DNA from: a virus
Strand: one strand, 5' to 3'
IMG/VR virus record: IMGVR_UViG_3300050821_010580
Location: 1-41,303 of that record
DNA length: 41,303 nucleotides
How positions within the stretch are numbered: position 1 is the stretch's first letter; every line of letters begins with the position of its first letter. Of this stretch, positions 4,307 to 29,507 are shown piece by piece. The notes beneath the pieces were generated by a model. That model saw only the letters and a program-made list of their open reading frames with translations, made no database searches and was not told the DNA's origin. Both the position numbers and the translations under genes were made by a program.

Positions 4307-4843
4307 ATGACAACAGTTAACCCATGCGGAAACATCATATCAGACGGCACTAACGTAGTGTCCTTAGGTGGCAATATTACTACGGCAGGAGCTTTAACAA
4401 CAGCAGGAGCTTTAACAACCGTCGGTGCTTATGGTGTTACCTTAACTTTCACTAACACGACAGGCGTGACCTTCCCAACCTCTGGAACTTTATCTACTGG
4501 ATCATTCCCAGTGACAGATGTTACCGGAACTTCTCAAGCAATGGCTATTAACAATGCTTATGTTGCTGATAACGCGTCATTAGTAACATTGACATTACCT
4601 TCGACAGCAGTATTTGGTAGTGAATTCATTATCAATGGTAAAGGTGCTGGTGGTTGGAAAATTGGTCAAAACGCAGGTCAATCTATTCAATTTACCGCAA
4701 ATGGTAGCGTTTCTTCTACTACAGCGGGAACGGGCGGAAGTCTTGCATCTTCAGTGGCCTCAGATTGTATACGAATACGTTGTATTACAGCAAATACATT
4801 ATTCGAGATTACGGATGCTTTCGGAAATATTTCTATCGTTTAA
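4307..4843 (+). CDS. Tail adhesin-related protein, 178 aa
   Basis: I chose the ATG at 4307 because TTGGAG lies 9 bases upstream; an in-frame ATG at 4262 would overlap the previous gene. The N-terminal half contains short repeats (TTAGALTTAGALTTVGAYG). The C-terminal half (SLVTLTLPSTAVFGSEFIIN, GGWKIGQNAGQSIQF) is paralogous to the end of the 792-aa spike. It may be a free-standing C-terminal head or trimerisation domain, or a module that can be exchanged between spikes. Confidence 0.75.
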   Translation: MTTVNPCGNIISDGTNVVSLGGNITTAGALTTAGALTTVGAYGVTLTFTNTTGVTFPTSGTLSTGSFPVTDVTGTSQAMAINNAYVADNASLVTLTLPSTAVFGSEFIINGKGAGGWKIGQNAGQSIQFTANGSVSSTTAGTGGSLASSVASDCIRIRCITANTLFEITDAFGNISIV

Positions 4844-4858
4844 TTTTTTTAAATACAG

Positions 4859-4876
4859 AGGGGCTGAAATGCCCCT
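4859..4876 (+). promoter_or_regulatory. Intercistronic hairpin
   Basis: AGGGGC and GCCCCT form a 6-bp perfect stem with a TGAAAT loop, in the 57-bp gap between two adhesin genes. No T-tract follows, so readthrough is expected; it may stabilise or process the transcript. Confidence 0.4.
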
Positions 4877-4900
4877 TACTACAAGTAGGATACAATTATC

Positions 4901-6478
4901 ATGACGACACTTAATCAGATCGGAAATAAAATAACTGACGGCATTAATAGTCTGACGCTTGCTGAAAGTGGTGTCGCTACTACGTTAGCCGGCACGGAAA
5001 CTTTAACCAATAAATCGATATCAGGAGCAACAAACACATTATCAGCAATCCCAGGAAGTGCGATTAATGATGCATCTGTTACTTATGCTAAAATACAAAA
5101 TATATCCGCCACTGATCTTATATTAGGTCGGTCAAGTGCTGGGGCCGGGGTCACACAAGAAATCGCGTGTACTGCATCGGGAAGGGCGATGATAGCCGCA
5201 GCGAGTGCAGCTGCACAGGCCGCTTTATTAGGCTTAAATTCTAGTTTAAATTTTTATGACGCTGTTGTTGACGGCGTAGGAACAAATCCCAGCTCATATT
5301 CTACCGTTTCTGCGGCGGTAGGTGCTGGTAAAAAATACATTAATGTTATTTCTAATACTACAGAAACGGCAGATATTGTCTTAGGATCTTTCTGCTTTGT
5401 ATATGCTAACAGTGGCGTGACAATTGATCTTGGTACTCATAAAATAGATTGCAATTCCGCAGATAACATTATTTTTTCTGGGTTCAATCAATTTACATCA
5501 ACTATTAAATTTTCGCCTTCTTCAAATTCAAATATTTTCATAAATACCTCTTCCAGTAATTTGGTTGTAATTATAAATAATTTTTTTATTGATTTTAGCG
5601 CAATGACCGCGACAGTTGCAAATTTTAATGTATCAACGGACGGTAGCAGCTTTATTTTTAAGAATGTTACAGTTAAAGCCGGTGGCGGCCATAATCAAAT
5701 TTGGTTAAACGGTGCCAACAATCCTTCCTATATAGAAAATATCTCTTACATAGGAACAGGAGGTTCTAGTAATACTCTCATTACATTAAATAATGGAGCC
5801 TATGCCGAAGGATTACAATATTCAGGAACCTTTAATCCCTCCATTAGTTTATTGGATATATACACAGGATCTAGTGTTAACAATGTTTATATAAATGCCG
5901 CAACTGCTATTAATGTCTTTCTTTATGAGGGAAGTTTAACTAATATCTCTGGATCAGCTGCTACCGCTTACGGATATGTCATAGCTATTTATGGCGGAAC
6001 AGACGGTTATGTTCTTGCAAACGGCACGCAAATATATGCCCTTTATATAAGTGGTTCCAGCATTGGAACAATTAGCAACTGTAGTTCTATTTCATTTTAT
6101 CCTTCTACTTACAATTTACCCACAAGAACTGGTAATAACTCGGTAATAGGAAATGATTATCAACCTTTACTTATACCCTCCACGACGGTCGGTAGTGCGT
6201 ATACTGCTAACCAGTGGAATCAGCAGATACAATGTGATACAACAACTTATGGGCCTGTTACAATAACGTTACCCGATGCTACCTCCGCAGCCGGACAATT
6301 AATTTATGTTTCTATAATTAATGGCGTGGGTGGGGTCACTATTAATGCTAGCGGCGGTCAAAATATCCTAACAGCAGCAGGGTATGCCTCTAATGTTAGT
6401 ATGTTATCTCTAGGAAGCACATGGGGCTTTATGAGTGATGGTGGGAATGTGACAATTATAAGTGCGGTGGGATCATAA
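4901..6478 (+). CDS. Tailspike/tail fibre paralogue, 525 aa
   Basis: The N-terminal ~115 residues include a fibre-type stretch (ETLTNKSISGATNTLSA, ATDLILGRSSAGAG) common in phage tail fibres. From residue ~118 (DAVVDGVGTNPSSY) comes a third copy of the beta-helix-like module found twice in the 792-aa protein, again closed by RTGNNSVIGNDY near residue 408. A distinct C-terminal domain follows (VTITLPDATSAAGQLIYVSI). Last gene of the adhesin cluster; the ATG of the next ORF lies 1 bp after the stop. Probably a second spike or a partner of the 792-aa one. Confidence 0.8.
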   Translation: MTTLNQIGNKITDGINSLTLAESGVATTLAGTETLTNKSISGATNTLSAIPGSAINDASVTYAKIQNISATDLILGRSSAGAGVTQEIACTASGRAMIAAASAAAQAALLGLNSSLNFYDAVVDGVGTNPSSYSTVSAAVGAGKKYINVISNTTETADIVLGSFCFVYANSGVTIDLGTHKIDCNSADNIIFSGFNQFTSTIKFSPSSNSNIFINTSSSNLVVIINNFFIDFSAMTATVANFNVSTDGSSFIFKNVTVKAGGGHNQIWLNGANNPSYIENISYIGTGGSSNTLITLNNGAYAEGLQYSGTFNPSISLLDIYTGSSVNNVYINAATAINVFLYEGSLTNISGSAATAYGYVIAIYGGTDGYVLANGTQIYALYISGSSIGTISNCSSISFYPSTYNLPTRTGNNSVIGNDYQPLLIPSTTVGSAYTANQWNQQIQCDTTTYGPVTITLPDATSAAGQLIYVSIINGVGGVTINASGGQNILTAAGYASNVSMLSLGSTWGFMSDGGNVTIISAVGS

Positions 6479-18794: not shown

Positions 18795-19076
18795 ATGGAT
18801 TTTTTATATTTAACTGCTGATGCTCACGAAAAAAGAGACTACATAGAAATATCTCTAATAAAACGAATAAAAACTGTAAAAAACAAAATTTTTATTTATT
18901 ACGATCGTGATCATAAATGTATTATTATGACTCTAGATAATTTTGTTGAAGCTGCCAATAAGGCTTCTACTCTTGCTCAAATAATTGTTGGATCTGCTGA
19001 AAATGATGTGGTTTTTAAGTGTAAAAATTTGTTTGTTCCTAACTTGAAAATAGTGGATAATAGTGGTGACGTGTAA
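18795..19076 (+). CDS. Hypothetical protein, 93 aa
   Basis: GGATGG precedes the ATG. Alpha/beta type (KNKIFIYYDRDHKCIIMTLDNFVEAANKAS), soluble. It ends 31 bp before an intrinsic terminator, so it closes a two-gene unit with the membrane protein upstream. No family recognised. Confidence 0.6.
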   Translation: MDFLYLTADAHEKRDYIEISLIKRIKTVKNKIFIYYDRDHKCIIMTLDNFVEAANKASTLAQIIVGSAENDVVFKCKNLFVPNLKIVDNSGDV

Positions 19077-19106
19077 TGGGTTTGGGATGATGTTCTCACC
19101 ATTGAA

Positions 19107-19136
19107 AACCGCTAGTTCGCGCTAGCGGTTTTATTT
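19107..19136 (+). terminator. Intrinsic terminator
   Basis: AACCGCTAG and CTAGCGGTT form a perfect 9-bp stem around TTCGCG, followed by TTATTTTA. It ends the 18.58-19.08 kb unit and lies immediately upstream of the truncated tRNA-like element. Confidence 0.8.
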
Positions 19137-19139
19137 TAT

Positions 19140-19197
19140 GGAGAAAGTAGCTCAGTAGTAGAGCCATGGGTCGGTGGTGTAAATCCATCCTTTCTCC
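19140..19197 (+). ncRNA. tRNA-like element lacking the anticodon arm, 58 nt
   Basis: GGAGAAAG and CTTTCTCC form a perfect 8-bp acceptor-like stem. TA then the D-arm GCTC-AGTAGTA-GAGC is fully canonical. A T-arm follows, GGTGG-TGTAAAT-CCATC, with five pairs (one G-U). Only 8 nt separate the D- and T-arms, so the anticodon stem-loop is missing. Either a tRNA gene that suffered an exact internal loss, or a tRNA mimic. No CCA is encoded directly at the 3' end; TTTTTACCA follows. Confidence 0.6.
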
Positions 19198-19221: not shown

Positions 19222-19461
19222 ATGAACCACGCAGAAGCGCTATCAAAGAGAGATAAAGCCTTAGAAAAGCTTTACGAGCCTCTATATGCTCGCAAACGAG
19301 ACCGAAAACCCGTTCCACCTCTGGTTATGGATCATTACAATCAAACTGCTGCTGCCCTACTCACTTTATTGAAAACAGACAGGGATGAGCACGCAAGGCG
19401 ATATTACAGTCAGCGTAAAAGCGAGATAGATAAAATGTTTGAGGATATCGATATTGAGTAA
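19222..19461 (+). CDS. Hypothetical charged protein, 79 aa
   Basis: GGGAAGG lies upstream of the ATG. Highly charged and helical (SKRDKALEKLYEPLYARKRDRK, DEHARRYYSQRKSEIDKMF). No membrane segment. It overlaps the start of the next gene, so they are probably coupled. Function unknown. Confidence 0.6.
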   Translation: MNHAEALSKRDKALEKLYEPLYARKRDRKPVPPLVMDHYNQTAAALLTLLKTDRDEHARRYYSQRKSEIDKMFEDIDIE

Positions 19462-20597: not shown

Positions 20598-20843
20598 CTA
20601 TTCTGGCATTAAATCTTTTAACCTCTGATTAAGAGCGGGGATCAGTATACTTAATATGATTCCGTTTTTAGACATACGTGAACGTTTTTCTATTTCCCTC
20701 AAGGTCTTTTCTAACGAGCTTGGCATACGTAGGTAAAAACGGTAATCATCGCCTCTTAATCCCTCGGCTTCATCAATCAACCTGTCAGTTTTTCTTTTAA
20801 GCGCGCTTCTTTTTGATAATGAAAAATCATTTGTAGTATTCAT
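20598..20843 (-). CDS. Ribbon-helix-helix partition protein (ParG/ParB-type), 81 aa
   Basis: Overlaps the 3' end of parA by 17 bp. The basic N-terminal arm (SLSKRSALKRKTDRL) is followed by a ribbon (DYRFYLRMP) and two helices (SSLEKTLREIEKRSRMSKNGIILSILIPALNQ), the standard RHH fold. In type Ib systems such a protein binds centromere repeats, represses the operon and stimulates ParA ATPase. Nearby 11-bp repeats are the likely binding sites. Confidence 0.75.
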   Translation of the reverse strand: MNTTNDFSLSKRSALKRKTDRLIDEAEGLRGDDYRFYLRMPSSLEKTLREIEKRSRMSKNGIILSILIPALNQRLKDLMPE

Positions 20844-21480
20844 TAAATATTTCTCCGTATAAACTTGATATTTCTATGATCGCATTTTTGTCTTTTTTAT
20901 ATTCAGTGACGGACATTCCTTTTTTGACGCTTTCCCGGAAAACTTTCCTGTCACACAAATATGTACTTAATAATGTAATATCAGATAATGTATTTTTCTC
21001 TAAAAATTTCTTAGCTAATTTTAGCTCGATTGAGTGAGGGTGCGGCATGACCCTATTAAGCAAAATGTATGCCTGTAGAGTTTCGTTTATCTGTTTAAAC
21101 TCCTCAACTAGATAATTTAATGTACCAATAGTATCAACATCAAACTGAGATGGTAGTAGCGGAAAAATAACTTTATCCACGACGCTAAGAGCACTACGCA
21201 ACTCCACTGAGTCTGTGCCAGCAGAATCAATGATAATATCATCGTATTTTTGCTGGAGAGCTTTTATTTCTGTTTCAACGGATCTTCCAAATTTTTTGAC
21301 ATTATTAACTCTAGGCCGTGTCTCAAATTTGTCGCGCCATTCGCACCAGTTACTAGCACTCTCCATTTTATCGGTATCAATCAATAATAAATCTTTAGTA
21401 ACAGCGCGCATAGCGGATAAATTAATAGCAGTCGTTGTTTTCCCGGTACCACCCTTCTCCCCTGCTATTAATATAATCAT
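20827..21480 (-). CDS. parA: ParA-family partition ATPase, 217 aa
   Basis: Deviant Walker A EKGGTGKTTTA (residues ~8-18) with the signature Lys; Walker A' LLLIDTDKMESA (~31-42); Walker B-type DDIIIDSAGTD. The protein lacks an N-terminal HTH, as in small type Ib ParA/ParF proteins. Paired with the RHH gene it should position plasmid copies at division. A MinD/ParA-like protein of other function is unlikely given the partner and repeats. AAGAGG precedes the ATG. Confidence 0.85.
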   Translation of the reverse strand: MIILIAGEKGGTGKTTTAINLSAMRAVTKDLLLIDTDKMESASNWCEWRDKFETRPRVNNVKKFGRSVETEIKALQQKYDDIIIDSAGTDSVELRSALSVVDKVIFPLLPSQFDVDTIGTLNYLVEEFKQINETLQAYILLNRVMPHPHSIELKLAKKFLEKNTLSDITLLSTYLCDRKVFRESVKKGMSVTEYKKDKNAIIEISSLYGEIFNEYYK

Positions 21481-29419: not shown

Positions 29420-29487
29420 GGCCCCGTAGCATAAGTTAATGCATCCTACCTGAAATAGGACAATCTGGTTCAAGTCCAGCCGGGGTC
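29420..29487 (+). tRNA. tRNA or tRNA-like gene, short and unusual, anticodon uncertain
   Basis: Acceptor GGCCCCG/CGGGGTC (7 pairs, one G-U), D-stem GCAT/ATGC with a 6-nt loop lacking the GG pair, anticodon stem TCCTA/TAGGA with loop CCTGAAA, and a T-arm CTGG-TTCAAGT-CCAG. The loop reads TGA at positions 34-36 but has C instead of the invariant U33; a one-base shift would give GAA. Only 68 nt, with a 3-nt variable loop and no encoded CCA. A T-run follows. Probably degenerate or a phage-type tRNA. Confidence 0.5.
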
Positions 29488-29507
29488 TTTTTTTGTTAGC
29501 AACATAA

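What the first reader, a model, noticed from the sequence alone, without database searches (positions are those of the whole stretch)
19140..19197. tRNA-like element with acceptor, D and T arms but no anticodon arm
An 8-bp acceptor stem, canonical D-arm and 5-bp T-arm are intact, with only 8 nt where the anticodon arm should be. Preservation of the stems suggests selection for a tRNA mimic (processing signal, primer, decoy or RNase P substrate) rather than plain decay. It sits right after a strong terminator and before a separate gene set.
Basis: seen in the sequence. Interest (0 to 1): 0.7.

Follow-up and report, generated by a model that had tools for sequence, protein, structure and literature searches.

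The report
Phage tRNA-like RNA without anticodon arm
A small RNA that keeps every part of a transfer RNA except the arm that reads the genetic code turns up in many unrelated bacterial viruses with its fold preserved, which suggests viruses use a tRNA shape for something other than translation.

Summary
At 19140-19197 there is a 58-nt tRNA-like element with an 8-bp acceptor stem, a 4-bp D stem and a 5-bp T stem. Only CATGGGTC lies where the anticodon arm should be. Rfam's tRNA model scores it 37.6 bits in a local scan, above the 29-bit threshold; the whole-window scan and ARAGORN missed it. It is not isolated. A pattern with a free, short D-to-T spacer hit more than 118 viral contigs (under 1 expected), with a peak at 8 nt and a recurrent spacer CNNGGKKC. 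A specific pattern gave 32 viral contigs. In bacterial genomes only a few copies keep a D arm. Each of 22 genomes or records checked holds one such copy. In orthologous phages the truncated form persists with compensatory acceptor changes and a coupled D-loop/T-loop change (A18 with G55), so selection acted after truncation. Polaribacter phage Danklef carries it, annotated only 'tRNA-OTHER'. A hairpin often sits directly upstream, as in the window. Lactococcus P335 phages show the contrast: a worn 61-nt remnant of a tRNA-Met. Best guess for function, unproven: a non-decoding tRNA mimic cut out by tRNA-processing enzymes at operon junctions. A stable decoy RNA is the main rival.

The parts
19105..19138 (+). 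strong hairpin with U-run just upstream (terminator-like): 12-bp stem 19105-19116/19121-19132, loop 19117-19120, T-rich tail
   Evidence: fold; sequence; upstream z -4.7
19140..19197 (+). anticodon-arm-less tRNA-like element (whole)
   Evidence: Rfam tRNA 37.6 bits; family model R1 62.1 bits against 22 for the window's real tRNA
19140..19147 (+). acceptor stem 5' strand, GGAGAAAG (includes G-1)
   Evidence: fold
19150..19164 (+). D arm: GCTC AGTAGTA GAGC, with A18 G19
   Evidence: fold; alignment
19165..19172 (+). 8-nt spacer CATGGGTC in place of the anticodon arm; matches family consensus CNNGGKKC
19173..19189 (+). T arm: GGTGG TGTAAAT CCATC, with G55 U56
   Evidence: fold; alignment
19190..19197 (+). 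acceptor stem 3' strand, CTTTCTCC (includes C73); no CCA encoded, followed by TTTTTACC
19222..19461 (+). next ORF (79 aa, no family match), starts 24 nt after the element, same strand
18795..19076 (+). upstream ORF (93 aa, no family match), same strand, ends 28 nt before the hairpin

Best explanation
The element encodes a short non-decoding tRNA mimic, one of a conserved class of tailed-phage RNAs in which the anticodon arm is replaced by a short linker while the acceptor/T stack, D arm and D-loop/T-loop elbow are kept. Most likely it works as an RNA-processing signal. Read-through transcripts past the upstream hairpin contain it; RNase P would cut at its 5' side and RNase Z or 3' exonucleases at its 3' side. 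That would leave the upstream RNA with a hairpin-protected 3' end, free the downstream mRNA, and release a stable 58-nt RNA. Shown: structure, conservation after truncation, recurrence in unrelated phages, hairpin association. Inferred: transcription, cleavage and purpose.
For: The parts kept are those that tRNA end-processing enzymes contact, and the part lost is the one they do not need (established knowledge of RNase P and RNase Z). In the window and in Danklef only a few nt separate the hairpin tail from the element, leaving no room for a promoter of its own. Upstream hairpins (z < -2) occur in 41% of family members against 16% of 160 ordinary tRNAs in the same loci, p = 0.001. In the L008/L100/L122 and L126/L154 groups the neighbouring hairpin also keeps pairing through sequence change. 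Acceptor sequences and discriminators vary freely and CCA is mostly not encoded, which argues against a fixed aminoacylation identity. In eight actinophages the same slot, usually behind a hairpin, holds a mini element, full-length forms (most with non-standard anticodon loops), or arm-poor forms. The acceptor stem is kept in all of them, with one mismatch in L161.
Against: No transcript or cleavage data. A minority of copies lie beside opposite-strand genes (L006, L031, L086), where mRNA punctuation makes less sense. RNase P does not need a D arm, so its near invariance suggests a further role; the D-arm invariance is however partly built into the search pattern. More than half of the copies have no strong upstream hairpin.
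Confidence: 0.4

Rival explanations
1. A stable decoy or sponge RNA: a tRNA mimic that occupies a host or defence protein which recognises the acceptor/T half and elbow (for example 3'-CCA modifying toxins of the toxSAS type, or tRNA-modifying enzymes) without taking part in translation.
For: FaRel2 modifies a mere acceptor-stem minihelix (PMC11559606), so an anticodon is not needed. The elbow contact 18-55 is maintained by co-change. One copy per phage in 22 genomes or records.
Against: CCA is rarely encoded and acceptor sequences show no common target. No recurrent defence or toxin gene beside it was found.
Confidence: 0.25
2. A tRNA remnant: a phage tRNA gene that lost its anticodon arm by deletion and is decaying.
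For: This happens: Lactococcus P335-type phages carry a 61-nt truncated tRNA whose intact tRNA-Met(CAT) version is kept in five relatives; some truncated copies have uncompensated stem mismatches. Acceptor covariation across unrelated phages could be inherited from different intact tRNAs. Several short elements of the first scan lie inside tRNA arrays.
Against: The core family scores 64-80 bits (window 62) against 44-49 for the Lactococcus remnants. Deletion ends should be random, yet 16 of 28 distinct 8-nt spacers of the unconstrained scan read CNNGGNNC (some are relatives). Orthologous truncated copies show two-sided compensatory changes.
Confidence: 0.15
3. A chargeable tRNA-like molecule, used for a non-ribosomal purpose or, like the tRNA half of tmRNA, on the ribosome with a protein standing in for the anticodon arm. 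The window copy with G-1:C73 would be a histidine acceptor.
For: G-1:C73 is the main identity element of tRNA-His (established knowledge); the window copy has it. A73 followed by C is frequent in the family.
Against: Discriminator and acceptor pairs vary without a common identity and pair 1:72 is mismatched in 5 of 33. No mRNA-like domain or tmRNA match.
Confidence: 0.12
4. Part of a phage attachment site derived from a host tRNA gene.
For: In Lactococcus phages the (different) truncated tRNA lies near attP and the integrase gene.
Against: Family copies sit mid-genome beside terminase, portal or capsid genes. An att copy needs only the 3' part of the tRNA, while here both acceptor strands and the D arm are kept. 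No integrase was found among the window proteins scanned.
Confidence: 0.04

Closest known systems
Polaribacter phage Danklef 'tRNA-OTHER, Undet (NNN)' (MT732458, NC_062745)
   Same: Close match to the family: 58 nt, 69.2 bits with the family model, hairpin with U run directly upstream, same-strand ORF 13 nt downstream, terminase genes about 2 kb further on.
   Different: Spacer TTTAGGTC departs from the CNNGG consensus at its first and fourth bases. Only an automatic annotation as an undetermined tRNA; no function proposed in the record.
tRNA-like domain of tmRNA
   Same: Acceptor and T stack, no anticodon arm, 5' end made by RNase P (PMC3985003 abstract).
   Different: tmRNA has a degenerate D arm and a long mRNA-like insert; here the D arm is canonical and the insert is 8-9 nt.
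mascRNA / menRNA tRNA-like 3'-end processing signals (from memory)
   Same: tRNA-like element cut by RNase P and RNase Z that defines the end of another RNA.
   Different: Eukaryotic; keeps a small anticodon arm. Processing has not been shown here.
Truncated tRNA-Met of Lactococcus P335 phages (ul36, P335, bIL309, TP712)
   Same: tRNA that lost its anticodon arm; intact relatives known.
   Different: Lies near attP, different spacer and extended D stem, uncompensated changes: looks like a remnant.

Membership tests
tRNA (Rfam RF00005) | acceptor, D and T arms with elbow contacts | tested here: met
tRNA (Rfam RF00005) | anticodon arm with 7-nt loop | tested here: not met
   only CATGGGTC between D and T stems
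tmRNA tRNA-like domain | mRNA-like domain with tag peptide | tested here: not met
   no tmRNA by ARAGORN or Rfam in the window
tmRNA tRNA-like domain | G3:U70 alanine identity pair | tested here: not met
   3:70 is G-C in the window; pair types at 3:70 vary across the family
Conserved anticodon-arm-less phage tRNA-like family defined here | spacer CNNGG[GTC][GT]C of 8-9 nt plus intact three stems | tested here: met
   window copy 62.1 bits with model R1, though it is one of the 33 sequences the model was built from
Conserved anticodon-arm-less phage tRNA-like family defined here | 18-55 contact kept by co-change (G-U or A-G) | tested here: met
   window is A18/G55; 4 of 4 A18 elements found in viral contigs also have G55; one other copy is G18/G55
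tRNA pseudogene / remnant | uncompensated stem mismatches, intact relative at the same place | tested here: inconclusive
   window stems fully paired; no relatives of the window phage available
tRNA-like RNA-processing signal (mascRNA type) | cleavage by RNase P and RNase Z | not testable with these tools
   needs RNA end mapping or in vitro cleavage

The most novel reading that the evidence does not exclude
Tailed phages across several bacterial phyla encode a dedicated class of anticodon-arm-less tRNAs that act in infection as non-decoding tRNA mimics (processing device or decoy), a viral use of tRNA shape not described before.
Probability: 0.6. Interest if true: 0.85.

Novelty: new variant of a known kind. 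Interest (0 to 1): 0.72.

Why it matters
Phage tRNAs are usually explained by codon usage or by resistance to tRNA-cleaving defences, both of which need an anticodon. A conserved phage tRNA that cannot decode needs another explanation. It points to a function of the acceptor/elbow half in infection, and an isolated phage (Danklef) makes this testable. tRNA finders miss these elements or label them undetermined, so the class is probably larger than counted here.

Tried and rejected
DNA similarity to annotated phages for the window region and for three family elements (L091, L008, L121): no useful match. Relatives of the window's TerL, portal and a downstream gene: one distant TerL at 32% identity and nothing else. 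GOLLD/ROOL-type giant RNA in the actinophage region: no Rfam match. The archaeal hits of the genome scan were rejected: they lack a D arm and look like 3' halves of intron-bearing tRNAs. Alanine identity and a constant discriminator were rejected by counting. A link to one specific neighbouring tRNA isotype was rejected: isotypes vary and most loci have none. Literature: no paper on a phage tRNA without anticodon arm found in the held library.

Full report
OBSERVATION. The window is an IMG/VR virus record of 41,303 bases. It encodes a terminase large subunit, portal and head-closure protein and a ParA-like ATPase. Bases 19140-19197 read GGAGAAAG TA GCTC AGTAGTA GAGC CATGGGTC GGTGG TGTAAAT CCATC CTTTCTCC. 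ARAGORN and the whole-window Rfam scan miss it. A 12-bp hairpin with a T-rich tail (19105-19138) ends one base before it, and a same-strand ORF starts 24 nt after it.

A FAMILY. Among 72 distinct copies with at least 6 acceptor and 4 T-stem pairs, the gap between D and T stems peaks at 8-9 nt, and 16 of 28 distinct 8-nt-spacer copies other than the window's read CNNGGNNC. The window's CATGGGTC fits. A pattern for this class, with no constraint on the acceptor stem, found 32 viral contigs. It found 20 genome contigs, most of them archaeal tRNA halves without a D arm; copies with a D arm remain in Acinetobacter, Venteria, a Rhizobiales and a Ruminococcaceae genome. Of the viral and bacterial hits with a D arm, nearly all have 6-7 paired acceptor positions.

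The aligned family (33 sequences) has 98.7% paired cells and two-sided changes at all seven acceptor pairs; its covariation score is 0.70 against about 0.12 for slid partners. These sequences had been chosen with at least 5 of 7 acceptor pairs, which inflates the first figure. A covariance model gives 64-80 bits to the 22 copies in the genomes and records checked, one copy in each, and at most about 50 to normal tRNAs. The window copy gets 62 and the window's own tRNA-Asn 22. The window copy and most of those 22 were among the model's training sequences.

SELECTION AFTER TRUNCATION. Acceptor covariation alone could be inherited from different intact tRNAs, so I looked at orthologous copies. 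(a) Actinophages with a helix-turn-helix gene before TerL: the mini elements in L158, L156 and L163 differ at three acceptor pairs, all by two-sided changes, with 100% pairing. In the same three, D-loop G18 with U55 in L158 becomes A18 with G55 in L156 and L163. (b) L008 against L100: pair 1:72 changes from C-G to G-C, and the hairpin upstream also keeps pairing. (c) L126 against L154: pair 2:71 changes from A-U to G-C, and a hairpin downstream has a two-sided change. (d) L022/L095 and L127/L130 differ by changes that keep pairing through G-U. Over all distinct copies of the first scan, 18-55 is G/U in 65 and A/G in 4. A scan for A18 found four viral copies, all with G55. The window copy is A18/G55 with G19/U56.

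In eight actinophages the same slot, mostly behind one conserved hairpin, holds a mini element (57-58 nt), a 73-nt form with a 6-nt loop by the fold, a 66-nt form with a 5-nt loop, a 70-nt near-normal tRNA, or 44- and 55-nt arm-poor forms. The acceptor stem is kept in all of them, with one mismatch in L161. Decoding does not look like what is being kept.

A CONTRAST. Lactococcus P335-type phages carry a 61-nt truncated tRNA beside attP. Five relatives match over the longer length, and the two inspected keep the intact 74-nt tRNA-Met at the same place; the truncated form differs by losing CAG and GGCTCATAAC. It has another spacer, an altered D stem and some uncompensated mismatches, and scores 44-49 bits. 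This is what a worn remnant looks like, and it shows how mini elements can arise. Several other short elements of the first scan lie within tRNA arrays and may also be remnants.

CONTEXT. The isolated Polaribacter phage Danklef has the element annotated as 'tRNA-OTHER, Undet'. As in the window, a hairpin with a U run ends a few nt before it and a same-strand ORF follows after 13 nt. Copies often lie near TerL, portal or capsid genes. Stable upstream hairpins are more common than beside ordinary tRNAs in the same loci (41% against 16%, p = 0.001). Most copies run with their neighbours, but L006, L031 and L086 have an opposite-strand gene on one side.

MECHANISM. The molecule keeps what RNase P, RNase Z, the CCA-adding enzyme and elbow-binding proteins contact and lacks what decoding needs. 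With almost no space for a promoter between hairpin and element in the window and Danklef, transcription must come through the hairpin. I therefore favour a processing device at operon junctions (0.40), then a decoy RNA (0.25), a remnant (0.15), a chargeable tRNA-like (0.12) and an attachment-site part (0.04). None of the functional steps is shown here.

NOVELTY. I found no description of such a class in Rfam or in the papers searched. Non-decoding tRNA-like RNAs are a known kind, so I rate it a new variant of a known kind.

Noticed in passing
L155-L163, about 4800-5500: Actinophages carry a noncoding region of up to about 800 nt between a helix-turn-helix gene and TerL, with conserved blocks (GATCGAAGAACTGTAAC..., TTGACGGCGG...CCGCCGTCAA) around the tRNA-like slot; no Rfam match in the one tested (L158). 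It may be a larger structured RNA or a packaging site.
   Followed up: partly
L029: A 180-kb phage record has three anticodon-arm-less tRNA-like elements within 13.5 kb; all keep a CATCG[CT]T 3' acceptor strand but have different spacers (6, 12 and 13 nt).
   Followed up: no
L085:9168-9243: tRNA with anticodon TTA (would read the UAA stop codon) in a six-tRNA cluster downstream of the mini element.
   Followed up: no
window 29420-29488: ARAGORN's tRNA-Ser(TGA) has no long variable arm, no encoded CCA, is below Rfam's tRNA threshold and is followed by a T run; probably not a normal serine tRNA.
   Followed up: no
window 20598-21480 (-): ParA-like ATPase overlapping a small ORF: looks like a plasmid-type partition module, so the phage may be a phage-plasmid.
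   Followed up: partly
Lactococcus phages near attP (AF323670 36732-36792 and about 35 other records): Mostly unannotated 61-nt truncated tRNA-Met, apparently intact in five relatives; present beside different integrase types.
   Followed up: partly
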